Shown here piece by piece: positions 1,639-13,990 of a DNA stretch of 26,950 bases. The position numbers were made by a program, and so were the translations under genes. Below the pieces are notes generated by a model, which worked only from the letters and a program-made list of their open reading frames with translations, made no database searches and had not been told where the DNA came from. Where the stretch lies: positions 2,492 to 29,441 of IMG/VR virus record IMGVR_UViG_3300000116_000127. One strand, 5' to 3'. The stretch's first letter is position 1. Each line of letters starts with the position of its first letter. The DNA comes from a virus.

Positions 1639-2481
1639 TTATCCTAAAATTGTTTGTTCTATAAAATTAATATTATGCATTATACAATCTTCCATCTCTT
1701 GGTTGTTATTATATTTTATGTCAAAATCAACTGGTAAATCAATTTTACCATTAATTAATCCAGTTGCTGTATCATCAAATTTAACCCCATTGATACCGTG
1801 CCATATTGCAGATGATGTATCAAAACTATCTATTATTCCAATTGCTCTTTGAATTATAAACTCTCTTATAGACGAAGCACCTAAATAATGAAATTGTAAA
1901 TCATCTCTCAAATTATCCAATAACTTCGTATTATTCTTAATATAATTAGAAGCAAATATTCTGTTAAATGATATATCTGAAGTTCCAGTTTTTTCTTGAA
2001 ATGCATTAGGAATACCCAATATGGACATACCAATCATCTTAACATCAGGATTTTCTATCATAAGAAATAATGATGTTAAAAATCCTGTAACATCTCCATA
2101 CTTACTTTGTGGTACACCCATTACCTTAACATCACTTAATTCTGAATTCTTCAGTACATCAATAAATGAAATCAAAGATTCGTAAGTCTTTTTCCAATCT
2201 TCTTTTGGATAATCAGGTGCTACAATATAATCTGGAATTAATCCACTTTTAACTACTTTTTCTATAAGTGCGTTTGTATCTATGCCTGCTCCTAATTCAA
2301 AAGCACTATTATCCATAATGATAGTATCACCTTTTTCTTTCTTCTTCTTATAAAAAGAAACATATCTATCATCTTCCAGTAAATGTGCTAAACATAAATG
2401 TCTTGTTGCACTATCAGGTATCCAGTTAAGATAACTAATAGGAGCAATATAACATCCTTCTATTTTTTTTAAGTTAGCCAT
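1639..2481 (-). CDS. dpdA: DpdA-like DNA 7-deazaguanine transglycosylase (TGT superfamily)
   Basis: Phage DpdA proteins are paralogs of tRNA-guanine transglycosylase (TGT) that exchange guanine in DNA for a 7-deazaguanine such as preQ0. The 280 residues show a TGT-like series of motifs in order: MDNSAFELG at 56-64 (equivalent to DSGGFQ, with D57), YIVAPDYP at 85-92, MGVPQSKYGD at 121-130 (substrate loop), MIGMSILG at 149-156, HYLGASS at 198-204 and IDSFDTSSA at 217-225 (D218/D221, equivalent to the nucleophile region). The C-terminal zinc cysteines of bacterial TGT are absent, as in many short phage members. It sits between a P-loop kinase and FolE2, in one operon with QueD. The match is by motif order rather than close identity. 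A different TGT-fold base exchanger is possible. Confidence 0.72.
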   Translation of the reverse strand: MANLKKIEGCYIAPISYLNWIPDSATRHLCLAHLLEDDRYVSFYKKKKEKGDTIIMDNSAFELGAGIDTNALIEKVVKSGLIPDYIVAPDYPKEDWKKTYESLISFIDVLKNSELSDVKVMGVPQSKYGDVTGFLTSLFLMIENPDVKMIGMSILGIPNAFQEKTGTSDISFNRIFASNYIKNNTKLLDNLRDDLQFHYLGASSIREFIIQRAIGIIDSFDTSSAIWHGINGVKFDDTATGLINGKIDLPVDFDIKYNNNQEMEDCIMHNINFIEQTILG

Positions 2482-2490
2482 TAATAAATC

Positions 2491-3081
2491 CTAAATTTTT
2501 TCATAAAAATTAATTTCCAATGTGTCATTAAAAACTGTATAATATTGATAATCATATTGTACAATTTTCTTATATTTACTTTCTAAATTATGTATATGTT
2601 GTATTAATTCACCTAATCCAATAAAATTATCTTTAACATCTCTAAATATTAAATGTTTAGTTATTTCTACGTCAGACAAGTTTTCCTTATTTCTTGATAT
2701 CCCATAAAATTTAACTCTCAAATCAAGAGTTACGTTAAGTAAAATAATACCTATATCATCATATTTTTTCATCAATTCATCTAATATTTTACTCTCTCTA
2801 ATGCCAGTAAGTACAAATGTCAATCCTTCCTCATCATTCTCTTCAACTATCTTATTGAACTCTTGTACTATTTCTTCCCATAACTCTACACTTGAATGTT
2901 CATATATATTAACATTATCTAATTCACTTTCATTCTTTATCTCTACATTTCTTTTGATAATTTTCTTTACCAAATCAGATGCTTTCACAATATATTTGTC
3001 ATCAATATCTAACATCCTTTCAGCATAATAATCCTTACCACTGCAAGCCTTTCCTATTACAACCATTACTTTTTTATTCAT
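2491..3081 (-). CDS. P-loop (deoxy)nucleoside monophosphate kinase-like protein
   Basis: The 196-residue protein starts with a strand and a Walker A loop, GKACSGKD at 10-17. In this loop Asp takes the place of the usual Ser/Thr after Lys, a variant seen in phage dNMP kinases and related small kinases. A TFVLTGIRES segment around 88-97 fits the second strand and substrate region. RVKFYGISRNKENLSD near 122-137 resembles the Arg-rich lid of nucleoside kinases. The gene lies between a T-fold-like gene and the DpdA-like gene, with a promoter-like element upstream (3117-3145). A role in making or recycling a nucleotide for replication or modification is plausible. The substrate cannot be read from the sequence, and it could also be a small AAA-type NTPase. 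Confidence 0.6.
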   Translation of the reverse strand: MNKKVMVVIGKACSGKDYYAERMLDIDDKYIVKASDLVKKIIKRNVEIKNESELDNVNIYEHSSVELWEEIVQEFNKIVEENDEEGLTFVLTGIRESKILDELMKKYDDIGIILLNVTLDLRVKFYGISRNKENLSDVEITKHLIFRDVKDNFIGLGELIQHIHNLESKYKKIVQYDYQYYTVFNDTLEINFYEKI

Positions 3082-3116
3082 ATAAATTTTCCATTAATGT
3101 CAATAATTAATATACA

Positions 3117-3145
3117 AACTTACCAAAAAAAACAATACAATCCAA
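3117..3145 (-). promoter_or_regulatory. Putative promoter before the kinase gene
   Basis: On the minus strand CTGTTGGAT (-35-like TTGGAT at 3140-3145) is followed after 17 bases, including T8, by TAAGTT (3117-3122). A GTATATT lies eight bases further on (3109-3115). The CTGTTG, T-tract and GTATATT blocks recur before queD and gp32, but here GTATATT is at a longer distance, so which -10 is used is unclear. It occupies the 82-base gap 3082-3163. Confidence 0.4.
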
Positions 3146-3163
3146 CAGTTGATGAAAATATTT

Positions 3164-3529
3164 TTATAAAATATCATATTCAACTCCACCACCATCAATA
3201 TTGTCTTCATAGAAATATACACTATGTATTACATACCCTTTATGTATCAAATATCTTCCCAATTCTTCTGAAATCATCTCACAAGAACGTTCTCCAAAAT
3301 TATGAATTTTAGTTATTTCATCAATAGGAAATTTCTCATTAATGAATTCATTAATTTCATTCTTCAATGTAAAAAATTCCACATCTCTATCACTGTGTTT
3401 CACCTCTACTTTAACTTCATAGAAAAACTTATGTCTATGATCATATGCTAAATAACCTACATTTTTTGGAGCATTCTTCCATCTGTGAGTTCCATCAGTA
3501 TTATCTCTAACTATCACATATTTTTTCAT
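3164..3529 (-). CDS. Small T-fold-like (QueD-related?) protein
   Basis: This is a 121-residue protein of a type recurrent in phages that I cannot name with certainty. Seen in the sequence: an HRH at 31-33 followed by a long strand (FFYEVKVEVKHSDRDVEF), then FFTLKNEI at 52-59, then GERSCEMISEEL at 79-90, and a terminal strand ending in a glycine-rich GGGVEY. This order resembles the QueD/6-pyruvoyltetrahydropterin synthase fold: HGH strand, DF..LK, TxE helix, last strand. However, the catalytic Cys and the first zinc His are not evident. Its ATG overlaps the stop of the dUTPase-like gene (TAATG), so the two are translationally coupled, and it sits inside the deazaguanine operon. It could be a non-catalytic T-fold partner or a different pterin-binding enzyme. 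Confidence 0.45.
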   Translation of the reverse strand: MKKYVIVRDNTDGTHRWKNAPKNVGYLAYDHRHKFFYEVKVEVKHSDRDVEFFTLKNEINEFINEKFPIDEITKIHNFGERSCEMISEELGRYLIHKGYVIHSVYFYEDNIDGGGVEYDIL

Positions 3530-4101
3530 TATTTCTTATCCTTATTACCTTGATATTGACCATTATATACATTGCTTACTGCATATGTCTCATCACATAC
3601 TATTTGTGCTACTCTTGCATTCTCCCCAATTACAATGTCTTGATATATAAACATCATAGCACCCATATTATCCACTTCAAATCCAGGATCATACACACTT
3701 GACATTATAATATTACCAGTTCGTAATATTGAACTTCTTTGCACAATCTTTGCACTAACATTGTTAGGTAATTTACATCCCTCATTGAAAGTCACACTAT
3801 ATACACCTTGTGGTAGTATATAACCATAAATTGAATTTTCTTTTGATATATCAACGTGGAAATCTTCCATATATAGAGAAACATCTTTCAACTCAACTTC
3901 TCTCATCTTCCCTTCGTTAGTTTCGTTGTTATATAAACCTTCATATATTGCAGTTTTATTACCTACATAACCAACAACACCTTCAGCAGTTACATTTCTA
4001 ATAGATTTGACAGTTAAATCAATACCCACTTGCTGAATATTCTTTTCATTGGCATTAATAACAATACCATCTTGATATAATCTTTTTCCAGTCAATACCA
4101 T
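3529..4101 (-). CDS. dUTPase / dCTP deaminase superfamily protein
   Basis: Members of this trimeric family hydrolyse dUTP or deaminate dCTP, keeping uracil out of DNA and feeding dTTP synthesis. The 190-residue protein shows the family motifs in order: QVGIDLTV near 24-31, PQGVYSVTF around 97-105, QRSSILRTG at 121-129 (the RSS phosphate motif), YDPGFE near 137-142, ARVAQIV around 162-168 (the RIAQ motif), and a C-terminal YNGQYQGN. After DPGF the sequence runs VDNMGAMMF, without the Glu expected in canonical dCTP deaminase (LTLEL), which favours a dUTPase activity. An AGGAG site precedes the ATG, which directly follows the queD stop. An ATTTATA element (4119-4126) lies inside the end of queD. 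Confidence 0.75.
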   Translation of the reverse strand: MVLTGKRLYQDGIVINANEKNIQQVGIDLTVKSIRNVTAEGVVGYVGNKTAIYEGLYNNETNEGKMREVELKDVSLYMEDFHVDISKENSIYGYILPQGVYSVTFNEGCKLPNNVSAKIVQRSSILRTGNIIMSSVYDPGFEVDNMGAMMFIYQDIVIGENARVAQIVCDETYAVSNVYNGQYQGNKDKK

Positions 4102-4575
4102 TTAATTCTCCTCAGGAATATAAATACCACTATTTTTTTCGTGTTCAAATACTTCTATCTTTGCAATCTTAACTCTTCCATTAGTATCTTCCAATACGAA
4201 AGGATTGAGTTTATCATATAAAAATTTTGCAAGTTGCTCAATACCTACTTGAGGTAATATTCTTAATCTTAATGCATCTCTACTATCCAATAAGTTCATT
4301 AAGTTTAACTCAGGATCATCCTCAGCAATTAAAACTGTATGATCTAATAACCATTTTAACCACTCATCAGGTCTCTTCCCATCAATAGTCTTGTCTGTTC
4401 TTTTCAATCTTCCAAAATCAAATACCCAATTCTTTTCATCCATTTCACCTTCATACCATACCTTGAAATAAACAGAATATCCGTGTAAAAATTTACAAGC
4501 AGTTCCTTCTGCTCTCCATTGTCTAAAGCATACAGAATATCCATCATAGACTTTAGTCGATAAAAACTTTCCCAT
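4102..4575 (-). CDS. queD: QueD-type 6-carboxy-tetrahydropterin synthase, phage variant
   Basis: QueD turns dihydroneopterin triphosphate, the FolE/FolE2 product, into 6-carboxytetrahydropterin on the way to preQ0. The 157-residue protein has the family layout: CFRQWRAEGTACKFLHGYS at 16-34, with the catalytic-type Cys27 four residues before His31; VFDFGRLK at 51-58; LLDHTVL around 76-82; GIEQLAKFLYDKL near 111-123 (helix equivalent to PTSE); and IEVFEHEKNSGIY near the end. In canonical QueD the zinc is held by three His, one before the Cys and two in HGH. Here the first is Trp/Gln (FRQW) and the third is Tyr (HGY). As I recall, this FRQW/HGY form occurs in other phages and some bacteria, so it is probably a known subfamily. 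A good promoter (4609-4637) makes it first of an operon that ends with folE2. Confidence 0.85.
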   Translation of the reverse strand: MGKFLSTKVYDGYSVCFRQWRAEGTACKFLHGYSVYFKVWYEGEMDEKNWVFDFGRLKRTDKTIDGKRPDEWLKWLLDHTVLIAEDDPELNLMNLLDSRDALRLRILPQVGIEQLAKFLYDKLNPFVLEDTNGRVKIAKIEVFEHEKNSGIYIPEEN

Positions 4576-4608
4576 AAAAACTCCAATATTAATAAATTTT
4601 AAAAATGT

Positions 4609-4637
4609 AATATACTAAAAAAAACTCAGATATGCAA
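4609..4637 (-). promoter_or_regulatory. Sigma70-like promoter of the queD-folE2 operon
   Basis: On the minus strand TTGCAT (4632-4637) and TATATT (4609-4614) are separated by exactly 17 bases containing a T8 run. The extended blocks CTGTTGCATAT and GTATATT are identical to those before gp32 (15978-16006), with the same spacing. It lies in the gap between an unknown gene and queD, about 34 bases before the queD ATG, whose ribosome site is TTGGAG. Confidence 0.65.
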
Positions 4638-4641
4638 CAGA

Positions 4642-5031
4642 TCATTTAATCTTTTCAAATTGTAGGTCTATTTCATAAATGAAAGGTTCTTGCTTTTTAG
4701 TTACAATTTCACTCATACCAAATCCTATTATTATACAATTGGCATATGTGGTTGTAAATTCATTGTTTTCAAATGTAACATCAGAAAATATATTATCGTA
4801 TAGTCCATTTGATATATCAGATATGTAATTAGTATTTTCTATATCATATAATTTTATTCTTATTTTTCTTGAAAATTTATCTAACAAATGAAATGAATAA
4901 TATGCTCTTTGTGGAATGTCAGATAGCCATTTAATTTCCCATTTTCTAATCTGTTTGAGTTGATGAACATTATTCATCATATTCATTGCCATCTGCTGTC
5001 TTTTAAGCAATTCTAAAATATCTTGCCCCAT
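4642..5031 (-). CDS. Hypothetical protein
   Basis: This 129-residue protein is not recognised. The ATG at 5031 is chosen because a perfect AGGAGG lies five bases upstream (5036-5041). The longer in-frame reading from 5076 runs through a terminator hairpin and is rejected. The N terminus (MGQDILELLKRQQMAMNMMNN) is helical and Met/Gln-rich. The rest alternates polar and hydrophobic residues with aromatic strands (WEIKWLSDIPQRAYYSF, then IRIKLYDIEN) and ends in IYEIDLQF. There is no signal peptide, membrane segment or Cys cluster. The mixed alpha/beta pattern would suit a small structural or tail protein, but it stands between the HNH endonuclease terminator and the queD operon, which gives no functional clue. 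Confidence 0.6.
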   Translation of the reverse strand: MGQDILELLKRQQMAMNMMNNVHQLKQIRKWEIKWLSDIPQRAYYSFHLLDKFSRKIRIKLYDIENTNYISDISNGLYDNIFSDVTFENNEFTTTYANCIIIGFGMSEIVTKKQEPFIYEIDLQFEKIK

Positions 5032-5043
5032 ATAACCTCCTTT

Positions 5044-5074
5044 AAAAAAATGCCACATTTTATGGTAATGTGGC
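5044..5074 (-). terminator. Rho-independent terminator after the HNH gene
   Basis: On the minus strand GCCACATT (5067-5074) pairs perfectly with AATGTGGC (5052-5059) across a 7-base loop, followed by A and T7 (5044-5051). It lies 15 bases beyond the HNH endonuclease stop and should end the nrdJ-endonuclease transcript. The T-tract runs almost straight into the AGGAGG of the next gene. Confidence 0.8.
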
Positions 5075-5089
5075 AAACCTTAAATTACA

Positions 5090-5110
5090 TTAATATATCT
5101 CACATTGTCC
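5090..5110 (-). repeat. Direct repeat copy 2: nrdJ tail sequence at the end of the HNH gene
   Basis: It matches 5773-5793 at 18 of 21 positions. All three differences are synonymous or a stop-codon swap (TAA for TAG, GAG for GAA, TGT for TGC), so both copies encode GQCEIY-stop. Confidence 0.7.
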
Positions 5111-5701
5111 GCTATGCTCACTTACCATCTTGCACATCTTAATAAAATAACTTTGATCGAACGTATGTTTCATTTGATTTATATCCTTATGTACTAATTG
5201 TATGTTATCAGCAGTATATCCTTTAGATGAATCAATTCTATCGAGTGAAATGTCATATTTTTTCGTGTAGTTACCATTTTCAGTCCATCTCCCTTCACCT
5301 TGGAACGATAAATCTATACCAGTAAGTGCACATTTTTTATCTTGTTCTATCCACTTGTTATAAACATCTTCGATAGTCAAGTCACCTTCATACTTAGTCC
5401 CTATTTCATTACTTTTGCGTCTAAATTTGCCAAACCAACTTGCTGGAATTTCTTTATATCCTTTCCAACTACCATTTTTTTTGCCACTTCCCATTCTTAT
5501 TCCACATTCTTTGCATCTCGAAGACTTTCCATTTATCAATGTATATGCAGATACTTTACATTCTACGTTACATCTTCCACATATGCATTTTACTTTAGCC
5601 TCGTGTTCAATGAAAATCTCAGGTGACGTAACTGTCCAATCTCCAAATACGTCACCTTCTTTAAATCGATTTTCGTATTTCGACTTATTCTTTTTACCCA
5701 T
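5090..5701 (-). CDS. HNH homing endonuclease (free-standing), with an NrdJ-like C-terminal tail
   Basis: This is a 203-residue putative homing endonuclease that would cut a target near nrdJ. Residues 1-30 contain a GDVFGDWTV segment typical of phage HNH proteins. Cys39, 41, 44, 48, 63 and 66 form a probable zinc-binding unit (CxxC pairs at 41/44 and 63/66). GSWKGYKEIPASWF at 77-90 precedes the nuclease core: KWIEQDKKCALTG at 116-128, SLDRIDSSKGY at 152-162, and NIQLVHKDIN at 166-175, a DRID-type HNH. The ATG at 5701 with GGAG upstream is preferred over an in-frame TTG at 5716. The last six residues, GQCEIY, equal the last six of the reductase ORF upstream, and the DNA there is a diverged duplicate. 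A 10-bp inverted repeat covers its ribosome site, and a terminator follows. Confidence 0.85.
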   Translation of the reverse strand: MGKKNKSKYENRFKEGDVFGDWTVTSPEIFIEHEAKVKCICGRCNVECKVSAYTLINGKSSRCKECGIRMGSGKKNGSWKGYKEIPASWFGKFRRKSNEIGTKYEGDLTIEDVYNKWIEQDKKCALTGIDLSFQGEGRWTENGNYTKKYDISLDRIDSSKGYTADNIQLVHKDINQMKHTFDQSYFIKMCKMVSEHSGQCEIY

Positions 5702-5727
5702 ATATATAATCTCCAATTTATATATAT
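5700..5727 (-). promoter_or_regulatory. RBS-occluding hairpin of the HNH gene
   Basis: Arms 5718-5727 and 5700-5709 form a perfect 10-bp, all-A/T inverted repeat around an 8-base loop. The loop holds the GGAG ribosome site, and the distal arm ends inside the ATG (5699-5701). Low GC makes it weak, and A/T repeats arise easily by chance here. It gains weight because both other endonuclease genes have comparable structures. Confidence 0.5.
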
Positions 5728-5772
5728 AAGTACATTATAAATCAAAATTCCATACGGTGGTAATTCCATATG

Positions 5773-5793
5773 CTAATATATTTCGCATTGTCC
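5773..5793 (-). repeat. Direct repeat copy 1: end of nrdJ
   Basis: This is the genuine 3' end of the reductase gene (GQCEIY-stop). Its diverged copy is at 5090-5110. Confidence 0.7.
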
Positions 5794-6456
5794 ACCCTGA
5801 CAGGCCAATTCTCCTGCAAGATTAGTTTCATCTTCTTCTTCAACGATTTGGGATAAATCTATAGTGTGTAAGCGTTTGGATAATTCTTCATATTCTTCTT
5901 TTGTAATGTCTTCAAAAGGTTGCTGAGTATAGCTACCTCCATCGAAAGGTAATACACTTATTCCATTATAAAAATCTCTATTAGCCCACATCCAAGCACC
6001 AACCATCTCCCATTCATCTTCTTTTATAGATACAGTTGCTGAAATATTATTTGTATTTTGGCCATCTCTATGTCCTGGTTTTATCCAATTTACAAATACA
6101 TTCTTAATTCTTGCAAGCATTTGAGTTACTTCTTCAGTTCTCAAAATTGCTCCATCAGGTGCTTTTTGTGGAATAGATATTACAGCAGTATCGTGAGGTC
6201 TAAAGAATTCATCTTCTATAATCTCAGGATGATTTTCTACTAAGTATTTGTAAATTGATTCATTTTTCATCACTCTGATTCTTCTAATATAATAATCATT
6301 ATGCCAAGAATGAATACCTGAAGAACATCCCATTACGATAGATGCAGTATTATGAACTACAGTCTTATTTTTCAGTTGATATGAGTGTGTATTTTCCACT
6401 TCTAAGTCAACTGTAAATTGTTTATTTTCATTCTTTACGATTTTTGATATTTTCAT
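5773..6456 (-). CDS. nrdJ: Class II ribonucleotide reductase, C-terminal piece with split-intein C half
   Basis: This 227-residue ORF is the last third of NrdJ fused behind a split-intein C half. Residues 1-36 are the Int-C, ending in TVVHN: penultimate His, terminal Asn. The C-extein starts with Thr37 (TASIVMGCSSGIHSW), the direct continuation of the KPSG that ends the N piece. The joined KPSG|TAS is a well-known reductase motif. YYIRRIRVMKNESIYKYL near 54-71 and the Asn/Thr-rich NTNNISATVSI belong to the catalytic barrel. The C terminus carries Cys219 and Cys224 (CQGGQC), the swinging redox pair expected in class II enzymes. Its ATG touches the stop of the endonuclease gene (TAAATG) and has a GAGG site. 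It is inactive alone and requires trans-splicing with the product of 7673-9781. Confidence 0.9.
   Translation of the reverse strand: MKISKIVKNENKQFTVDLEVENTHSYQLKNKTVVHNTASIVMGCSSGIHSWHNDYYIRRIRVMKNESIYKYLVENHPEIIEDEFFRPHDTAVISIPQKAPDGAILRTEEVTQMLARIKNVFVNWIKPGHRDGQNTNNISATVSIKEDEWEMVGAWMWANRDFYNGISVLPFDGGSYTQQPFEDITKEEYEELSKRLHTIDLSQIVEEEDETNLAGELACQGGQCEIY
6349..6456 (-). other. Split intein C half (NrdJ, KPSG|T site)
   Basis: It encodes the first 36 residues of the ORF. Block F-like FTVDLEVENTHSYQL and block G TVVHN are followed by Thr as the +1 nucleophile. The length is typical of split-intein C halves. Confidence 0.88.
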
Positions 6457-7602
6457 TTATTTTTCCTCAATATTCGACATTATAAAATTTAATGTCAGTT
6501 GTAAACAATAATTCTTATCTTTTAAAAAATCCACTTCATTAATTCTCAATAATTTGAATCCAAGCGTATGATACGCGTCATTTTTCTTGACATCATTTTC
6601 AATTACATTAGGTAATGAATGCCAATACGATCCATCGAATTCAATTATAACATTTCGTATTTTAATATCAGGAACGAAATATCTATTATATTTTTCAGAA
6701 AATAAAAAACAAGGTTTTTCTGTTATAGGATGTCCTATAAAGTTGTTTTTTAAATCATCTGAGAGTTCATTAAATACCAATTGATTAAATTCACTTTCTA
6801 TTTTTGAAGAGAACGTTGGAAATTTTGAAATCATTTTGGCAATCCTTCTATTGTATAGAACACTACCCTCATATTCGCCGTATTTAGAAGTATAATATTC
6901 TAATCTATTGTGGTTAGTTCTATTATACATTACCTGATCATACTTTACGTTACCTTCAATCTCTCCGTACTTTTTGACATAGTAATCTCTCGTATTAGCA
7001 TATGCTCTTTTTTTATTAGCATTTTCAAATCTTTCCTTACCTTCAACTTCACCATATTTTTTAATATAGAAGTTTAAATCTCTTCTCTGAATATTACTCA
7101 CTTTTTTCGTTGCTTCTTCCATTGAAATGTTGTATTGATTCATCACTTTCTCAACAGATCTCGGATTAAATTTCCTTTTGAGGTAATCGTCATATTTTAC
7201 AGCACCTTCTTTCTCACCATATCTCTTAATGAAATTAGATAGAGTGTGTTTGGATTTTTCAGAATGTTTTTTTCTTATATTTTCAATTTCATCGTCTGAA
7301 TATCCATTTTTTTTCAAAGATCCATAACTTACAGATAATTTTGAATTCTTTTCTTCGTATTTAAGTTTACCTTCCACTTCACCATATTTCGAAATATAAT
7401 ATTCTAAACTACCTTTGCCCTTCTGTTTCTCTCTCCATTCATTGTACCTCAATGTTCCATTTTCTTGTCCATACTTAAACATTGAAGTTTTTAAATCGTT
7501 CGATCTCATAAGACTTCCAAATCTCTCATTACCTCGTTCTTCACCATATATATGAATTAAAAATCTTCTTAATCTATCGATCTTATTTTGTAATTTTTTC
7601 AC
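6457..7602 (-). CDS. Vsr-like (EDxHD-type) homing endonuclease with seven YG-repeat modules, inserted in fractured nrdJ
   Basis: The 381-residue protein has two parts. Residues 15-255 contain seven copies of a motif like KYGEVEGKLKYE (Tyr-Gly at 19, 44, 73, 128, 183, 212 and 241), spaced about 25-29 or 55 residues, very basic and probably DNA-binding. Residues 265-375 form a nuclease domain: Glu271, YFVPDIK (Asp312), IIEFDGSYWH (Glu321, Asp323, His328), NDAYHTLGFKLLRINEVDF (Asp342). This pattern fits Vsr-fold/PD-(D/E)XK nucleases, including the EDxHD homing family known from fractured phage genes. Translation starts at GTG 7602 behind a GGAGG site. It lies exactly between the two halves of split NrdJ, and its stop abuts the next ATG. 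Its ribosome region is covered by a 12-bp inverted repeat. The target is inferred to be the intact KPSG|T region of nrdJ. Confidence 0.82.
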   Translation of the reverse strand: MKKLQNKIDRLRRFLIHIYGEERGNERFGSLMRSNDLKTSMFKYGQENGTLRYNEWREKQKGKGSLEYYISKYGEVEGKLKYEEKNSKLSVSYGSLKKNGYSDDEIENIRKKHSEKSKHTLSNFIKRYGEKEGAVKYDDYLKRKFNPRSVEKVMNQYNISMEEATKKVSNIQRRDLNFYIKKYGEVEGKERFENANKKRAYANTRDYYVKKYGEIEGNVKYDQVMYNRTNHNRLEYYTSKYGEYEGSVLYNRRIAKMISKFPTFSSKIESEFNQLVFNELSDDLKNNFIGHPITEKPCFLFSEKYNRYFVPDIKIRNVIIEFDGSYWHSLPNVIENDVKKNDAYHTLGFKLLRINEVDFLKDKNYCLQLTLNFIMSNIEEK

Positions 7603-7665
7603 TGTTAAACCTCCGTTTTTATTATAAATACATTATTATAAAAAAACCAAGACTTAACAGTGAAA
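7597..7665 (-). promoter_or_regulatory. Start-codon-occluding inverted repeat with an internal ATTTATA element
   Basis: TTTCACTGTTAA (minus strand, 7654-7665) and TTAACAGTGAAA (7597-7608) form a perfect 12-bp inverted repeat, loop 45 bases. The distal arm contains the GTG start (7600-7602) and ends three bases from the GGAGG site (7611-7615). TATTTATA (7623-7630) sits in the loop. Transcripts read through from nrdJ would hide the start; one begun just after TATTTATA would lack the upstream arm. This is the layout described for T4 I-TevI, though the promoter itself is inferred. Confidence 0.65.
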
Positions 7666-7672
7666 TTGATTA

Positions 7673-9781
7673 TTAGTTATAATCTATTACATTATCTTCT
7701 TCAGTTAACTCATCTGCTCTAACCCAACCTCGATTTGAAGTTAAAAATTTATGATTAGGTGTACACGTCACTGAATATCCATCTTCAAACGTAACAGTAT
7801 ATGTATCTTCTACACCATTAATGTATAATTTACTTATATTCTGCCACTCGTCATTCATATCCTTAACTTTCAGATCTTCAGTTACTTCGAAGAATGTTTT
7901 ATCAATATTCTTCATCTCATTAATATTATGACCATTCATTTTGAATATTTCTTCTAAAGACAACGTACCTTTATTAGTTATAATCTCAGTTTCAGGTAAC
8001 ATACATCCACTTGGCTTTACCGTTGTACATCTTGCAGCAGGATTAATTCCTATTTCTTTTGCTCTTTTTTCATTTTCTTCCTTTACTATATTTGCTGCTT
8101 CAGTTAAATCAAATTTAGCATATTCACCACTACCAATTCCAGTCAATCCAACACCAATTAATGCATCTTTTTCTGTAGTTTTCTGCCAAATAGGTCTTAA
8201 ATAATGAAAATCAGTATAACTTGCTTGTAAAGTTCCAATAAATGCTGCTGCTCTAACTCTATTATTTAATTCTTCTTGTGAAGTAATATCTGAAACATTT
8301 ACTTCTGTTAAATTACAAAACTGAAATGGTTTCAAACTGATTTCGCAGTTATGTGCAAGTATTCCATTTGCAAAGAAATTATGATTATTTTCCACTTCTA
8401 TATCATACACGTCGTGCTTTTCTTCTATAAAAGTTATTGACTTTAATTTAGCCATTTTAAATCCATCAACAGTTTGTACTTTTCCTCTATCTAAATATAA
8501 TACTAATGTATCTTCATTAGTTAAATTCTTACATTCTACCCAACCTCTATTGTTAGTGTAAAATTTATGATCAGGAGTACAAGTTACATTGTATTCTATT
8601 CCATTCTCTTCTACTGTTAATTTAACAACAATTGCATCTTTTTTAGTTAATATTCCATTAGTAACTAAATTTAATTCAACTTTTCCAGTTTCTTCATTAT
8701 AAGTCTTAACTTTGATTTCTCTTTCATTATTTACAGCATCAACTATTTCTGAAATTGTCATTTTTCCATTTTCAGTTTCTATTTCAGTTTCACCTATAAA
8801 ACAACAAGGGTTAGTTCCTAACGATTTATCATTTGAGAAGTAAATTCCAGGTTCTCCTGCTCCTGATGCTTCTATTCTCTTCCATAATTTTTTAAAATCT
8901 TCTTCTTTCACTAAATGTCTTAAAATAACAGCACTATTATTTGCTCTTCCTCTTTGTGGGTTTAATTCCCACCAATTTCCTGATTTACAACTAATCATTT
9001 CATCATCATCCATACTAAATAATGATATTAATGCTGCTCTTCTTATACCACCTGTCAATACAGCATCTGCTAAGTGACATACTATATCGTGTACTTCTAT
9101 TGGTTTTAACTTATCCCCATCTTCCTTATTACTTAAAATAGATCTTATCTTCTCAATACACAATTTTAGTGGATCTGGACCTGGTGCTTTACCACCTGAA
9201 GTGATTAGTCTTGCTCCTTTAGGTCTAATATCATCATATACGAAGTTAATGGTACTTCCACCTTTAAAATAACTCTTCATTAATATTTTAATTGCATCAG
9301 CCCAACCCTCTATTGAATCATTTATTAAGAATTTTCTATGTTTATTTGGGTTTGGCTTATGTATTTCAGGTAACATCTCAACGTGATGTCTTTGAACACT
9401 ATATCCTACTCCACATCCACCTAATAATAAAAATATTATTTCTGAAAATGCTCTATAATCATCAACTGGCAAATATGAACAATTAAATATCCTTGAATTA
9501 TTTAATTCAATTGGTTTACCTGCAAATTGCATAGATCTCATAGATGCTAATACTCTCTTATCATATACGTATTGGTAAGCATTTTCAATTTCTTCCCTCA
9601 AATGAGGATATTTAGTGATGTGCATTTGTTTATTTCTATCAACTATCTCTTTAAAAGTTTCTCTCCTCTTTAAAAAGGGATTGTATTTAGCATATTTCAT
9701 ATATGTAGTGATTTGTGATAGTATTTCCTGTGATATGTGCATTTTTTTAGAGTGCAAAACTCCCTCTGACGTATTTCCCAT
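7673..9781 (-). CDS. nrdJ: Class II ribonucleotide reductase, N-terminal piece with a mini-intein and a split-intein N half
   Basis: The 702-residue precursor supplies most of an adenosylcobalamin-type reductase that makes deoxynucleotides. Order: N-extein 1-326 (Cys101 in FNCSY is the first redox Cys; the LLLGGCGVGYSVQ signature is near 118-130; it ends NPC with radical Cys326); contiguous mini-intein 327-478; middle extein 479-592 (CEISL with catalytic Glu480, FCNL with Cys489, then GVGLTGIGS); split-intein N half 593-702 after KPSG. Joined to the 191-residue C-extein encoded at 5773-6348, the mature enzyme would be about 631 residues, shorter than the 739-residue Lactobacillus enzyme. The ATG at 9781 is chosen for its GGAAGGA site; an in-frame start at 9850 has none. 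Class II, not class I, is inferred from NPCxE, the CxxxxC tail and the absence of a small-subunit gene here. Confidence 0.9.
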   Translation of the reverse strand: MGNTSEGVLHSKKMHISQEILSQITTYMKYAKYNPFLKRRETFKEIVDRNKQMHITKYPHLREEIENAYQYVYDKRVLASMRSMQFAGKPIELNNSRIFNCSYLPVDDYRAFSEIIFLLLGGCGVGYSVQRHHVEMLPEIHKPNPNKHRKFLINDSIEGWADAIKILMKSYFKGGSTINFVYDDIRPKGARLITSGGKAPGPDPLKLCIEKIRSILSNKEDGDKLKPIEVHDIVCHLADAVLTGGIRRAALISLFSMDDDEMISCKSGNWWELNPQRGRANNSAVILRHLVKEEDFKKLWKRIEASGAGEPGIYFSNDKSLGTNPCCFIGETEIETENGKMTISEIVDAVNNEREIKVKTYNEETGKVELNLVTNGILTKKDAIVVKLTVEENGIEYNVTCTPDHKFYTNNRGWVECKNLTNEDTLVLYLDRGKVQTVDGFKMAKLKSITFIEEKHDVYDIEVENNHNFFANGILAHNCEISLKPFQFCNLTEVNVSDITSQEELNNRVRAAAFIGTLQASYTDFHYLRPIWQKTTEKDALIGVGLTGIGSGEYAKFDLTEAANIVKEENEKRAKEIGINPAARCTTVKPSGCMLPETEIITNKGTLSLEEIFKMNGHNINEMKNIDKTFFEVTEDLKVKDMNDEWQNISKLYINGVEDTYTVTFEDGYSVTCTPNHKFLTSNRGWVRADELTEEDNVIDYN
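7676..8005 (-). other. Split intein N half (NrdJ, KPSG|T site)
   Basis: It encodes the last 110 residues of the ORF. Cys1 follows KPSG (CMLPETEIIT, block A). Block B is TCTPNHKFLTSNRGW with the TxxH motif, then VRADELTEEDNVI before the stop. There is no endonuclease domain and no C-terminal block G, so it ends as a trans-splicing half. Confidence 0.88.
8348..8803 (-). other. Contiguous mini-intein in NrdJ (NPC|CE site)
   Basis: This 152-residue in-frame insert carries all splicing blocks: Cys1 in CFIGETEI (block A), TCTPDHKFYTNNRGW (block B), YDIEVENNHNFFAN (block F) and GILAHN (block G), followed by Cys as the +1 nucleophile. It is too short for an endonuclease. It separates the radical Cys of NPC from the catalytic Glu of CEISL, so the enzyme is dead until it splices out. 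Confidence 0.9.
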
Positions 9782-9870: not shown

Positions 9871-10344
9871 TTATCTAAAAATATTTTCAGATTTTGATTT
9901 CATTTTTGAATATATTTGTTTTTGAAAATTAGTAGGTCCATTGTTATTCATTTCCTTAATATAATTCTGAACAGCAGAATGATTTTCTGACTTTACACTT
10001 ATCTGTCCAATGTTTAAATTAGTAGTAATGTCAAAAGTTCTACCATCTGCTCCATATCTATTCTTAGATAAATGTAAATTACCTACATCGTTTACTTTAT
10101 CTTCTAATTTTCTTGAGAAAGTTAATATAATGTCTGAACAAAACACTTTGTTAAACGATTCAGCAATATCATCATTCTGAATAATTGATTTTTGAGTTCC
10201 TGAATTATGCGAATATACATCATTTGCATAAAACATATGTGTATCATCGACTGTAATGTCGATTGTATCACCTTCACCTATCAACTCAATAGATACTATT
10301 TCGTCAATATCAAAATCACTAAGATCTAAATTATGATCTTTCAT
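9871..10344 (-). CDS. Replicative helicase gp41, C-terminal piece with split-intein C half
   Basis: The 157-residue ORF joins a 47-residue split-intein C half to the last 110 residues of a DnaB/gp41-type helicase. The Int-C ends in FYANDVYSHN; the C-extein starts with Ser48 (SGTQKSIIQNDDIAESF). It continues with the final strands of the RecA-like core (DIILTFSRK) and an LHLSKNRYGADG segment that should include the arginine finger. It overlaps the end of the endonuclease gene by 14 bases in another frame, with a GAGG site inside that gene, so translation is likely coupled. Spliced to the product of 11654-12973 it would give a 459-residue helicase, close to T4 gp41 at about 475. Alone it lacks Walker motifs and cannot be active. 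Confidence 0.9.
   Translation of the reverse strand: MKDHNLDLSDFDIDEIVSIELIGEGDTIDITVDDTHMFYANDVYSHNSGTQKSIIQNDDIAESFNKVFCSDIILTFSRKLEDKVNDVGNLHLSKNRYGADGRTFDITTNLNIGQISVKSENHSAVQNYIKEMNNNGPTNFQKQIYSKMKSKSENIFR
10204..10344 (-). other. Split intein C half (gp41 helicase, TNR|S site)
   Basis: It encodes 47 residues. The acidic N terminus (DLSDFDIDEIVSIE) precedes block F-like TIDITVDDTHMFYAN and block G VYSHN, with Ser at +1. The layout resembles gp41-8 Int-C from marine metagenomes, as recalled from memory. Confidence 0.88.
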
Positions 10345-11584
10345 TTAAAAACCTCATACATTTATTAATAACTTCTTGTTTATTTTCTAAATAATCACTT
10401 TCCCATATAATGAGAACGTGATATCCTTTGTCAGTTAAAGAATTAACTCTATCATTGTCCTGCTTCCATTTGTCCTTGACGTTATTTGCAAATGATTGAT
10501 CATTCTCACTATACATTTTTGGATTAAAATGCCAAAAGTCGCCATAAAATTCTATAATTTTGTTGTTGAATTTGAAATCAACGCAAATAAACTTTAATTG
10601 TTCATTTATATGGAAAAATTTATATTCTTCATTTAATTCCCCAAAGAAACATTTCTCTCTGTCTTTTGGTTGCATCAGTTCATATAAATTCCAAAATAGA
10701 TCTTGAGAAACTTTACTATATCTTAGGGTGTTATTTTGAGTTCTCTTAATGTTTAGATCTTGCCACCTCTTTCTACCTATTTTTTCACCATATATATCAA
10801 TGTAGTATTTTTCAGAATTTTGATACTTCTTAACATTTACGTAAAGTCCGTATCTCTTACTACCTTCCACTTCACCATATCTATGTATAAATGATTTCTT
10901 CGAGGTTCTGTCCATTGATTTTCTATACTTGTCATAATTTACCTTCCATTTACTACCATATTTGTCAATGAAGTATTGCTTTGAAAATCTATATGATTGT
11001 TTGTCGTTACGTTTCTTCCATCTATCATATCCTTCTCGCAATCCATATCTCAATTGATATTCTTCTAACGTTCTTCCGTTTTTTCTCGAAAGTCCATTCG
11101 CTTCTAATTTAAGTTTATTTTCTTGTTGTGTTTTGAGTTTTTTAGTTAAAGTTTCATTCCACTTCATTTCCCCTAATTCTTTACCATACTTGTCAGTATA
11201 GTGTTTTAGGTTAAATGTCGACTTCTTATTGCATATATCATTCCACTTTTTTTCACCTTGAATGTCACCGTATTTGAATATGAGTTTATCCTTTGTTAAT
11301 GTACACCTATTTACCTTCTCGTTAAATCTTTTGGTACCTTCAACTTCTCCATATCTTATACAATTGGACTTTAACGAACTACTATCTCTGCCGAGTTTTA
11401 CTAACTCATCAAATCTATTGTCAATGCGTTCATCTATTTCATTCTCTATCCAATATAATAAAAAATTTAATCTCGATCGTATGTATTTGTGATCGTAATT
11501 CTTCTCAATACTTTCCAACTGACGAATGTATCTTTGTTGCAACTCTACGTTAAGTTTACTAATTATCAATTTTACCAAATTCAT
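10331..11584 (-). CDS. Vsr-like (EDxHD-type) homing endonuclease with YG-repeat modules, inserted in the fractured helicase gene
   Basis: The 417-residue protein parallels the endonuclease inside nrdJ. After a helical N terminus, seven YG modules (Tyr at 78, 105, 133, 180, 209, 236 and 265; e.g. RYGEVEGTKRF) recur at 27-29 residues, once at 47. The C-terminal nuclease domain has FICVDFKF (Asp336), IIEFYGDFWH (Glu345, His352), a Lys/Asp stretch with Asp376, and LIIWESDYL (Glu395). This is the same arrangement as its paralog, but sequence identity outside motifs is low, so the two are not recent duplicates. The ATG follows an AAAGGAG site. It lies between the two helicase pieces and overlaps the second by 14 bases. 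The target is inferred to be an intron-less, unsplit helicase gene around TNR|S. Confidence 0.82.
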   Translation of the reverse strand: MNLVKLIISKLNVELQQRYIRQLESIEKNYDHKYIRSRLNFLLYWIENEIDERIDNRFDELVKLGRDSSSLKSNCIRYGEVEGTKRFNEKVNRCTLTKDKLIFKYGDIQGEKKWNDICNKKSTFNLKHYTDKYGKELGEMKWNETLTKKLKTQQENKLKLEANGLSRKNGRTLEEYQLRYGLREGYDRWKKRNDKQSYRFSKQYFIDKYGSKWKVNYDKYRKSMDRTSKKSFIHRYGEVEGSKRYGLYVNVKKYQNSEKYYIDIYGEKIGRKRWQDLNIKRTQNNTLRYSKVSQDLFWNLYELMQPKDREKCFFGELNEEYKFFHINEQLKFICVDFKFNNKIIEFYGDFWHFNPKMYSENDQSFANNVKDKWKQDNDRVNSLTDKGYHVLIIWESDYLENKQEVINKCMRFLNERS

Positions 11585-11587
11585 TTA

Positions 11588-11615
11588 ATATTCTCCTTTA
11601 GTGTGAATATAAATA
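11588..11615 (-). promoter_or_regulatory. Small hairpin and ATTTATA element at the endonuclease ribosome site
   Basis: ATATTC (minus strand, 11605-11610) can pair with GAATAT (11588-11593) around an 11-base loop holding most of the AAAGGAG site. GTATTTATA (element 11608-11615) overlaps the upstream arm, so a transcript started just downstream would lose it. Six A/T-rich pairs are weak evidence by themselves. Confidence 0.4.
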
Positions 11616-11653
11616 CATTGATAATTTTTTTTAATGACTGCATCACAAAAATT

Positions 11654-12973
11654 TTACTTTTTTTTAGTAAATAGTTTGTCACCTACTTCCAGTCCAGTCG
11701 ATATAGTTTTCAATTTACCATACAATGTAGGTAATTCGTGATTTGATGAAACATTTATTACTTTACCACTCTTCAATGTTATTTTATAAATAGGTTGCCT
11801 TTCAATAGGATAAACTTTAGTAACTTTCCTAAATCCTTTGTGAGTTAATACCTCATCGCCTTCTTTGAGAGTGCCAATTTTAACTTTACCTGAAGGAGTA
11901 TCCACTAAATCATTTACATCGTGACACCTATTAGTTTGAGAAGCAGTTACTACTGGTATATCTAATTCTTGTGCCATTTTCTTTAGATCTTCATAAACTT
12001 CTTCCAAATTTAGTCTTTTATCTCTATAATTTGAAGTAGGTTTAATCAAATCTCCATAATCTATGAATACAATATCAGGTTTAAACTTATCAACTCTTAT
12101 TTGCTCTACGTGAGTTTTTAATTTAGGAACTGTTACTGATTTCATAGTATAGAATGATATTATAGATTCACCCAATTGTGGATTATTGTTAATAAAATTG
12201 TCCACTAATGAAGGATCTTTTTCTAATATGTTTACTGGAGTTTTTGTCAATATAGTATCATACCTTATTGCTGTCTGAGTTTCTGTCAATTCTAAAGTGA
12301 AATGCACTACATTCTTACCTGCTAATAATGCATTTGAACCAAAATTAGCCAATAACCAACTCTTACCAATTCCTGAAGGTGCAATTATAGTAATTAAATC
12401 TCCATTTCCAAACCCACCTTTAAGTGCTTGATCTAATTCGTCAAATCCAGTCGTAACTGTTACTCTTTTCAATTTAGTGTATCTATCAATAGCAGTACTT
12501 TTATAATCTAATCCTATTTCAGTTTGATTAGTAACACTATAAGCATCTTTTATTAACTTCTGAACTTGATCAAAGTCTTCTCCTTCAACTGCATCAACAC
12601 ATAGTAATATGGTTTTTTTCCAATTTTGATTATTAAAGAAATTAAATGATTCGTCTTTGATATATTCTAACCCATTAGAAGGTATATGCACATCATATAC
12701 ATTATTTACTAATTCATTTAATCCATATTTGAGTGCTTTGTCAGTTTTTACATCTATCTTATTCAATTCCAATTCAAAATACTCTCTATTAGGAATATCT
12801 TTATAATTTTCCCAATAATTCATAGTCCATCTCACCACTTGTTGTAATTCTACAGAATCAAATAAAGTATAATCGATTATAGGATACATTTTTTGTAAAA
12901 ATTGCTTATCAGTTACAAGTGATGCTATTATTTTGCTTTGAAACGTTTTGTTATATTTAACCTTATCAATCAT
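11654..12973 (-). CDS. Replicative DNA helicase gp41 (DnaB-like), N-terminal piece with split-intein N half
   Basis: The 439-residue ORF encodes residues 1-349 of the phage replicative helicase, then 90 residues of a split-intein N half. Visible parts: an N-terminal helical domain to about 150; TTGFDELDQALKGG near 174-187; Walker A APSGIGKS at 198-205; ELTETQTAIR near 228-237; Walker B IVFIDYGDLI at 301-310; and TASQTNR at 343-349, the conserved sensor-like motif directly before the break. Cys350 begins the intein. The start overlaps the exonuclease gene by 8 bases. The hexameric enzyme would unwind DNA at the fork with gp32 and a polymerase, but only after trans-splicing to the piece at 9871-10344. 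The gap to the endonuclease gene (11585-11653) holds only the regulatory elements listed. Confidence 0.92.
   Translation of the reverse strand: MIDKVKYNKTFQSKIIASLVTDKQFLQKMYPIIDYTLFDSVELQQVVRWTMNYWENYKDIPNREYFELELNKIDVKTDKALKYGLNELVNNVYDVHIPSNGLEYIKDESFNFFNNQNWKKTILLCVDAVEGEDFDQVQKLIKDAYSVTNQTEIGLDYKSTAIDRYTKLKRVTVTTGFDELDQALKGGFGNGDLITIIAPSGIGKSWLLANFGSNALLAGKNVVHFTLELTETQTAIRYDTILTKTPVNILEKDPSLVDNFINNNPQLGESIISFYTMKSVTVPKLKTHVEQIRVDKFKPDIVFIDYGDLIKPTSNYRDKRLNLEEVYEDLKKMAQELDIPVVTASQTNRCHDVNDLVDTPSGKVKIGTLKEGDEVLTHKGFRKVTKVYPIERQPIYKITLKSGKVINVSSNHELPTLYGKLKTISTGLEVGDKLFTKKK
11657..11926 (-). other. Split intein N half (gp41 helicase, TNR|S site)
   Basis: It encodes 90 residues from Cys1 (CHDVNDLVDTPSG) through IYKITLKSGK and block B-like VSSNHELPT to VGDKLFTKKK-stop. 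The form and insertion point match gp41-8-type split inteins. Usual block B Thr is Ser here. Confidence 0.9.
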
Positions 12974-12983
12974 CTTCTCTCAC
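12965..12983 (-). repeat. Gene-end direct repeat, copy A (exonuclease 3' end)
   Basis: The 19 bases match 13972-13990 at 18 positions. Both copies encode VREDD-stop in the same phase at the end of adjacent genes and contain the GAGAAGATGATTGAT overlap region where the next gene starts. Confidence 0.6.
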
Positions 12984-13970
12984 ATAATTTTTATATAAAA
13001 CATTCAATTGGAAATATACATTATCTCCATTCATTATCTTAGTTGGGTCAATTTTATCCTCCCCTAATAACTTCCTTATCAAAAATCGATTGTAAGTGTC
13101 GTTATTTTCAGATAAAATGTCTCTAATTCTTGACTTTAATAGTCCGTTCATAAGTGGATCGTGCAATTGCATTAAGTTAAAATTACGTTCGTATAATTCT
13201 CTATTATTCAATATCTTATCTTTATTGGAATTATCCACATTTTCTAAATATTCAAAAATCTCATCAATAGAATATCTTTTATCATCTTTTAATATTGGTA
13301 ACAATTTGCCAATCGTAACTGCTCCAATACCATTAATACCATCAATTGCATCTCCTTTATCTCCCATTATACATTTGTAATGTATAAAATTCTGAGGACT
13401 TGTTGGAAATTTCTCCATTATGGTTTGTGAAGTGATTATTTCTTTCTTAATTGGGTTATAAATGCTAACACTTTCGTTTATTAATTGATAAAAGTCTTTA
13501 TCAGTACTACATATTATAACCTCATTTTTAAAAAAAGAAGAAATATACGATATGACGTCATCTGCTTCAGTATTATCTAAAATTATTATATTTACTGGTA
13601 ATAATATTAAATATTCATACAATCTCTTAAATTGTATCTTCATAGACTCTCTTTCGTGCTCAGCACTTTCAAACATATATCTTCTGTTCAAATTGTCTTT
13701 AATTGCCCTTCCACTTTTATAAGAAGATAACATCTGCTTTCTTTTTTTTGTTGAATTTGAACCATCAAATACTAATATAACTCTCGTTGGTTGTAATTTT
13801 CTTATAATGTAACTTAATCCAACTAAAAACCCAGTTATACCACCTACGTGAACGCCATCCCCATTTAAAGTGGGGACAGCAGTAAACGAACGTATATAGT
13901 GGTTTAATCCATCAACTATTAATACCCTATCGTTATATGATAGACCATTACTTGGTGTGCTTATATCCAT
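12966..13970 (-). CDS. rnh: 5'-3' exonuclease / RNase H (T4 Rnh and FEN family)
   Basis: Family members remove RNA primers and 5' flaps during lagging-strand synthesis. From the ATG at 13970 the protein has 334 residues, against about 305 for T4 Rnh. Seen: VLIVDGLNHYIRS near the N terminus (first metal Asp), VILVFDGSNSTKKRKQ (second), LDNTEADDVISYISSFF (third Asp cluster), VIICSTDKDFYQLI, and the helix-three-turn-helix GDAIDGINGIGAVTIGKLL that binds DNA. A TTG two codons upstream also fits, so the start is uncertain by six bases. It overlaps or abuts both neighbours (UvsX before, helicase after) in a recombination-replication cluster. Its last five codons duplicate those of uvsX. Confidence 0.88.
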   Translation of the reverse strand: MDISTPSNGLSYNDRVLIVDGLNHYIRSFTAVPTLNGDGVHVGGITGFLVGLSYIIRKLQPTRVILVFDGSNSTKKRKQMLSSYKSGRAIKDNLNRRYMFESAEHERESMKIQFKRLYEYLILLPVNIIILDNTEADDVISYISSFFKNEVIICSTDKDFYQLINESVSIYNPIKKEIITSQTIMEKFPTSPQNFIHYKCIMGDKGDAIDGINGIGAVTIGKLLPILKDDKRYSIDEIFEYLENVDNSNKDKILNNRELYERNFNLMQLHDPLMNGLLKSRIRDILSENNDTYNRFLIRKLLGEDKIDPTKIMNGDNVYFQLNVLYKNYVREDD

Positions 13971-13971
13971 A

Positions 13972-13990
13972 ATCAATCATCTTCTCTAAC
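13972..13990 (-). repeat. Gene-end direct repeat, copy B (uvsX 3' end)
   Basis: Partner of 12965-12983, encoding VREDD-stop of the UvsX-like protein. Confidence 0.6.

What the first reader, a model, noticed from the sequence alone, without database searches (positions are those of the whole stretch)
5773..9781. Ribonucleotide reductase encoded in two pieces and interrupted by two inteins, one split and one contiguous
Seen: the ORF at 7673-9781 ends in an intein N half after KPSG; the ORF at 5773-6456 starts with an intein C half (TVVHN) followed by TAS, and KPSG|TAS is a continuous reductase motif. The first ORF also contains a complete 152-residue mini-intein. Known: 'fractured genes' with split inteins and an endonuclease gene at the break were described from marine metagenomes, and phage Aeh1 nrdA is split by mobE. 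New here as far as I can tell: both layers in one class II reductase. Mature length would be about 631 residues from three exteins.
Basis: partly seen in the sequence, partly recalled or inferred. Interest (0 to 1): 0.85.

Follow-up and report, generated by a model that had tools for sequence, protein, structure and literature searches.

The report
Phage reductase gene with two inteins
A phage from environmental DNA encodes its DNA-building-block enzyme in two pieces that must be stitched together after translation by a split intein, while a second, one-piece intein cuts itself out of the first piece; the arrangement is real, but relatives carry the two inteins in almost every combination, so it is one stage of a known kind of gene parasitism rather than a unique object.

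Summary
A class II (RTPR-like) nrdJ lies on the minus strand as an N-piece (7673-9781) and a C-piece (5773-6456). A 152-aa contiguous mini-intein sits at NPC|CEI. A split intein (110 + 36 aa) sits at KPSG|TAS, with a 381-aa EDxHD/Vsr-type homing endonuclease gene between the halves. The predicted mature protein is 631 aa, and nearly all 80 close relatives fetched are uninterrupted at exactly these two points. This is a "fractured gene" as described by Dassa et al. 2009; splicing itself was not tested. The claimed novelty is only partly right. About 40 further phage nrdJ loci carry the KPSG|T intein, nearly all split, and several have both sites occupied: contiguous+split, split+contiguous, split+split (L092/L119: nrdJ in three pieces, two unrelated endonucleases), and two contiguous plus one split. 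The mini-intein's nearest relatives are split inteins whose C half starts with the same MA(K/R)L, so it may be a re-fused split intein; the tree shows several split/contiguous transitions but does not fix the direction for this copy.

The parts
8804..9781 (-). nrdJ extein 1 (residues 1-326, up to ...GTNPC)
   Evidence: aligns to RTPR (1L1L) and to phage nrdJ relatives; ends at the NPC of the NPC-x-E active-site motif
8348..8803 (-). contiguous 152-aa mini-intein, site 1 (NPC|C...HN|CEI), no endonuclease domain
   Evidence: best solved relative NrdJ-1 intein 8UBS, E 7e-23; nearest intein L161 split, 71% identity
8453..8455 (-). internal ATG (M of MAKLKSI) that aligns with the start codon of the C half in split relatives
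8006..8347 (-). nrdJ extein 2 (114 aa, CEISLKPFQFCNL...KPSG)
7676..8005 (-). split intein N half, site 2 (110 aa, C1, block B TCTPNH, net charge -12)
   Evidence: (TIGR01445)
6457..7602 (-). homing endonuclease gene between the halves, 381 aa, GTG start behind GGAGG; YG-containing repeats plus C-terminal EDxHD/Vsr-like nuclease domain (EFDG.YWH)
   Evidence: MTES_1575 5e-6, below cut-off; best PDB match I-Bth0305I catalytic domain 3R3P, prob 1.00, target TM 0.75
6349..6456 (-). split intein C half, site 2 (36 aa, ...TVVHN, net charge +2); its ATG follows the endonuclease stop codon directly, GAGGA as ribosome site
5776..6348 (-). nrdJ extein 3 (191 aa, TASIVMGCSSGIH... to C-terminal CQGGQC)
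11654..12973 (-). gp41/DnaB-type helicase N piece, ending in split-intein N half (11657-11926) after SQTNR
   Evidence: gp41-1 intein 6QAZ, E 7e-19
10331..11584 (-). second EDxHD/Vsr-like endonuclease gene, between the gp41 pieces; paralogue of 6457-7602
   Evidence: 27% identity over 384 aa, E 4e-18
9871..10344 (-). gp41 C piece: split-intein C half (10204-10344, ...SHN) followed by extein SGTQKS...

Best explanation
The nrdJ gene has been invaded at two active-site motifs by two inteins. Site 2 (KPSG|T) holds a 'fractured gene' unit: the N half and the C half of a split intein on separate polypeptides, with a free EDxHD/Vsr-type homing endonuclease gene in the break. The halves associate and trans-splice the exteins; the endonuclease cuts uninterrupted nrdJ alleles in co-infecting phages so that the whole unit is copied in. 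Site 1 (NPC|C) holds a 152-aa contiguous mini-intein that splices in cis and has no endonuclease of its own. The product is one 631-aa adenosylcobalamin-dependent reductase. Shown by sequence: the elements, the exact junctions, the empty alleles, the endonuclease fold, the recurrence in relatives. Inferred: splicing, cleavage and homing. Possible but not shown: the mini-intein descends from a split intein by loss of the endonuclease gene and in-frame fusion of the halves.
For: Junctions: nearly all 80 nearest relatives are uninterrupted at exactly both points. Intein motifs and catalytic residues (C1, TPxH, penultimate H, terminal N, +1 C or T) are present in both, with TIGR01445/TIGR01443/PF14890 hits. 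Endonuclease: invariant D312, G324, W327, H328, D337 over 10 homologues; model matches I-Bth0305I. The same split site occurs in about 40 other contigs, many with an orthologous endonuclease in the same slot (42-49% identity in L103, L109, L116, L092) and about 14 with none, which rules out an assembly error. Intein states are scattered over the nrdJ gene tree (46 changes among 85 genes), as expected of horizontally moving elements. Cultured precedent: Aeromonas phage Aes508 gene 43, annotated as N-intein, VSR-domain ORF, C-intein. Re-fusion: the mini-intein groups with split inteins, and 'all split inteins form one clade without the minis' is rejected, p 2e-6.
Against: No splicing, cleavage or homing was measured. 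The record is a 29.4-kb fragment, so another nrdJ elsewhere in the phage cannot be excluded. Placing the window's mini-intein outside the split clade is not rejected (p 0.24), so the direction split-to-contiguous is open for this copy.
Confidence: 0.88

Rival explanations
1. The split intein no longer splices: the two reductase pieces associate without ligation, as in the Aeh1 NrdA case, or the gene is dead.
For: Aeh1 nrdA is split by mobE and works as separate pieces (PMC3653736, PMC2988022).
Against: Both halves keep the intein catalytic residues and motifs, the same split is kept in about 40 divergent loci, all three ORFs are intact with ribosome sites. No intein is reported at the Aeh1 break.
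Confidence: 0.08
2. The break is an assembly or sequencing artefact joining different molecules.
For: The sequence is one metagenomic contig.
Against: Independent contigs from other samples have the same order of N half, orthologous endonuclease, C half; intein halves would not be made by a mis-join.
Confidence: 0.01
3. On the origin of the mini-intein: the contiguous form is ancestral at site 1 and the split relatives arose from such forms by endonuclease invasion.
For: With the window and L201 held outside the split clade the tree is not significantly worse (p 0.24); contiguous inteins with endonuclease domains are common at the site.
Against: Keeping all contiguous minis outside the split clade is rejected (p 2e-6). 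The internal M of MAKLKSI aligns with the start codon of split C halves. In L096 the equivalent position still reads AAAAAGGAGAAAGAAAAATG, a ribosome site plus start codon inside a contiguous intein (AAGGAG stands before 0.5% of internal ATGs).
Confidence: 0.4

Closest known systems
Fractured genes of Dassa et al. 2009 (doi 10.1093/nar/gkp095; cited through PMC3653736, original not held)
   Same: Host gene in two ORFs, split-intein halves at the break, free endonuclease gene of Vsr-like type in between, phage-type host genes (gp41, nrdA, nrdJ)
   Different: Here one nrdJ carries a second, contiguous intein as well, and gp41 and nrdJ are both fractured within 7.2 kb; whether the 2009 set contains the KPSG|T site could not be checked
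NrdJ-1 split intein (PDB 8UBS; its home gene recovered here as L238)
   Same: Same host gene and same insertion site 1 as the window's mini-intein; best solved homologue (E 7e-23)
   Different: NrdJ-1 is split, has a PD-(D/E)xK-like endonuclease gene in the break and +1 Ser; the window copy is contiguous, without endonuclease, +1 Cys
gp41-1 split intein (PDB 6QAZ)
   Same: Homologous to the split intein of the window's gp41 helicase (E 7e-19)
   Different: A different copy, N half net charge +7 and C half -12
Aeromonas phage Aes508 gene 43 (JN377894)
   Same: Split intein with VSR-domain endonuclease ORF between the halves, plus another intervening element (group I intron) in the same gene
   Different: DNA polymerase, not reductase; the second element is an intron, not an intein
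Trichodesmium erythraeum DnaE (Liu and Yang 2003; title read in the reference list of PMC5874633, details from general knowledge)
   Same: One gene with a split intein plus contiguous inteins
   Different: Cellular DNA polymerase; no endonuclease gene in the break, as far as I recall
I-Bth0305I (PDB 3R3P)
   Same: EDxHD nuclease domain, best structural match of the window's endonuclease model
   Different: Encoded in a mobile intron; only its catalytic domain was compared

Membership tests
Fractured gene with split intein | Host gene in two same-strand ORFs, broken at a conserved motif | tested here: met
Fractured gene with split intein | Complementary intein N and C halves with catalytic residues flank the break | tested here: met
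   junction KPSG|TAS restores the uninterrupted relatives exactly
Fractured gene with split intein | Free-standing homing endonuclease gene of Vsr/EDxHD type in the break | tested here: met
Fractured gene with split intein | Halves trans-splice | not testable with these tools
   needs co-expression
Fractured gene with split intein | Endonuclease cuts the uninterrupted allele and drives homing | not testable with these tools
   scattered distribution on the gene tree is consistent
Contiguous mini-intein | Intein splicing blocks in one ORF, under about 200 aa, no endonuclease domain | tested here: met
Class II monomeric ribonucleotide reductase (RTPR, TIGR02505) | Family model over its curated cut-off | tested here: inconclusive
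   spliced sequence: best family by far, 264.9 bits, E 1.3e-78, but the cut-off is 340
Class II monomeric ribonucleotide reductase (RTPR, TIGR02505) | Active-site NPC-x-E motif, following Cys, C-terminal CxxxxC | tested here: met
   aligned to 1L1L (NPCCEI...FC, CQGGQC)

The most novel reading that the evidence does not exclude
Split inteins in phage nrdJ are not an end state: after losing the endonuclease gene between the halves they can fuse back into contiguous mini-inteins, and the window's site-1 intein (and, more clearly, L096 with its fossil ribosome site and start codon) is such a healed copy, next to a second intein still in the fractured state.
Probability: 0.5. Interest if true: 0.68.

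Novelty: new variant of a known kind. Interest (0 to 1): 0.52.

Why it matters
The window and its relatives give one gene with two intein sites in nearly all states: empty, split with endonuclease gene, split without it, contiguous mini, contiguous with endonuclease domain, and combinations. That makes the life cycle of split inteins, including whether they can re-fuse, testable by comparison. Endonuclease families sort by insertion site (EDxHD type at KPSG|T, a PD-(D/E)xK-like family at NPC|C), which suggests that the endonuclease dictates the site. The phage also needs at least two split inteins (nrdJ, gp41) working in one cell without cross-splicing; their halves carry opposite charge patterns, a possible natural orthogonal pair of use for protein engineering.

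Tried and rejected
Group I intron instead of intein at the breaks: no Rfam match in the window at gathering threshold, and the intein motifs are decisive. HNH ORF 5090-5716 as intron-borne: no group I match even at relaxed threshold, whereas the same search finds one in L078. Search of the bacterial and archaeal genome collection for the KPSG|T intein pattern gave nothing, but the pattern carries a phage-type SGIHxWH motif, so this says little about cellular reductases. A search for close relatives of the mini-intein gave one that belongs to a split locus already seen (L244, same contig as L144) and four distant ones not examined further. The original Dassa et al. 2009 paper is not held. The AU tests that would fix the direction for single copies stayed above 0.05.

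Full report
OBSERVATION. The window is part of a 29.4-kb viral contig. On the minus strand nrdJ is encoded by an N ORF (7673-9781, 702 aa) and a C ORF (5773-6456, 227 aa), with a 381-aa ORF (6457-7602) between them. The N ORF consists of extein 1-326, a 152-aa intein, an extein of 114 aa and a 110-aa intein N half; the C ORF of a 36-aa intein C half and a 191-aa extein; the exteins sum to 631 aa. Intein models match. The spliced sequence is best matched by RTPR, the monomeric adenosylcobalamin-dependent reductase (264.9 bits, E 1.3e-78, below the curated cut-off of 340) and aligns to 1L1L with the NPC-x-E motif, the following Cys and the C-terminal CxxxxC. Site 1 falls inside the active-site motif NPC-x-E, site 2 inside the conserved KPSGT loop.

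EMPTY ALLELES. Eighty relatives were fetched from IMG/VR. With one exception (L078) all read across site 1 with zero gap, and every one that reaches past site 2 reads across it with zero gap. L078 carries a 728-nt insertion about 13 codons behind site 1 that contains a group I intron (71 bits) with an HNH-like ORF. This fixes both splice junctions to the residue.

SITE 2, THE FRACTURED UNIT. A pattern for an intein end at KPSG|T found 43 stretches in IMG/VR. About 38 have the C half in its own ORF of about 230 aa, three are contiguous (L108, L110, L122) and one is a chance match (L125). Where the N half is present it ends about 110 aa after KPSG|C; many have a 340-385-aa ORF between the halves, about 14 have none. 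The window's endonuclease is 42-49% identical to those of L103, L109, L116 and L092 and related to the one between its own gp41 pieces (27%, E 4e-18) and to one in a fractured uvsW-like gene (L081). Ten homologues share invariant D312, G324, W327, H328 and D337. The AlphaFold model (mean pLDDT 82.5) has a long helical repeat region and a C-terminal nuclease domain whose best PDB match is the I-Bth0305I catalytic domain (prob 1.00, target TM 0.75). The Foldseek E-value, 0.04, is weak because the domain is a small part of the query. EDxHD endonucleases are an established homing family (PMC3943268).

SITE 1, THE MINI-INTEIN. A second pattern found 118 stretches. Of those read in detail, 59 are split with both halves seen, 10 split with only the C half, 45 contiguous, most of these with an endonuclease-sized insert. 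L238 matches NrdJ-1 (N half CLVGSSEIITRNYGK..., C half MEAKTYIGKLKSRKIV...). The endonuclease genes between site-1 halves form a separate family with a PDFFxY...VEIKG signature (24 sequences, no link to the site-2 family at E 1e-4). The tree of 65 inteins puts the window's copy and four other contiguous minis into a clade with all 34 split ones; its nearest neighbour is L161, split, 71% identical. Holding all split inteins together without the minis is rejected (p 2e-6), so there were several transitions between the two states. No single contiguous group is shown to be nested at p<0.05 (0.24, 0.18, 0.05). Two signs favour fusion of formerly split halves. The window reads ...VLYLDRGKVQTVDGFK-MAKLKSI..., with M at the position of the start codon of split C halves (MAKLKSIEIL in L092). 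In L096 the equivalent place reads AAAAAGGAGAAAGAAAAATG, a ribosome site and start codon inside a contiguous intein (background 0.5%).

BOTH SITES TOGETHER. The double arrangement is not unique. Contiguous+split: L089, L096, L106. Split+contiguous: L230, L232. Split+split: L092/L119 (three reductase pieces, two unrelated endonuclease genes), L121, L153, L200, L083. L114 has two contiguous inteins (RIYN|C and NP|S) plus the split one; L103 has two contiguous inteins at other sites plus the split one. On a tree of the reductase exteins the intein states need 46 changes among 85 genes (shuffled mean 52): presence of an intein says little about gene ancestry, as expected of mobile elements.

A SECOND FRACTURED GENE IN THE WINDOW. 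The gp41/DnaB-type helicase is split after SQTNR: N piece 11654-12973, endonuclease 10331-11584, C piece 9871-10344 beginning with an intein C half. Its intein is closest to gp41-1 (6QAZ, E 7e-19). Net charges are N -12 / C +2 for the nrdJ pair and N +7 / C -12 for the gp41 pair, which may keep them from cross-splicing (inference).

PRECEDENT. Fractured genes with Vsr-like endonucleases were named by Dassa et al. 2009 and included two nrdJ cases (stated in PMC3653736; the original is not held). Cultured Aeromonas phage Aes508 has gene 43 broken by N-intein, VSR-domain ORF and C-intein, with a group I intron in the same gene. A gene with split plus contiguous inteins is known from Trichodesmium dnaE (title in the reference list of PMC5874633; content from general knowledge). 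Multiple intervening elements in phage reductases are also reviewed in PMC3653736.

VERDICT. Observation confirmed; mechanism by analogy strong; novelty reduced from 'new arrangement' to a well-resolved member of a recurrent, so far little-described set. I found no description of the two-intein or three-piece phage nrdJ in the papers searched, but that library lacks most subscription papers and the 2009 original.

Noticed in passing
window 9871-12973 (-): Second fractured gene: gp41/DnaB helicase in two pieces with a gp41-1-like split intein and a paralogous EDxHD endonuclease gene between them.
   Followed up: yes
window 5090-5716 (-): HNH-type endonuclease ORF just downstream of nrdJ ends in SGQCEIY*, a copy of the nrdJ end GGQCEIY* (18 of 20 nt, differences synonymous). 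L217 has a homologous ORF (34% identity) in the same place followed by a longer out-of-frame copy of the nrdJ 3' end. Looks like a homing gene that docked behind nrdJ and left a remnant of the recipient's nrdJ tail.
   Followed up: partly
L092 3484-9796 (IMGVR_UViG_3300028571_000061): nrdJ in three pieces with two split inteins and two unrelated endonuclease genes, next to the C piece of a fractured helicase gene.
   Followed up: yes
L096 reverse complement 3519-6421: Contiguous mini-intein with AAAGGAG plus ATG at the former C-half start: an apparent fossil (or still active) internal ribosome site inside an intein.
   Followed up: partly
L081 4337-10748: One contig with two fractured genes: a uvsW-like helicase (EDxHD endonuclease in the break) and nrdA (GIY-YIG-like ORF in the break).
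   Followed up: partly
L103 reverse complement 1950-5630 and L114 2744-6391: nrdJ with three inteins each: two contiguous with endonuclease-sized inserts and one split.
   Followed up: partly
L078 6960-7680: Group I intron with HNH-like ORF in nrdJ, about 13 codons behind intein site 1.
   Followed up: partly
window 12966-15118 (-): uvsX and the neighbouring exonuclease gene both end in VREDD* with 17 of 18 identical nucleotides; L140 has two adjacent methyltransferase genes with identical 3' ends.
   Followed up: no
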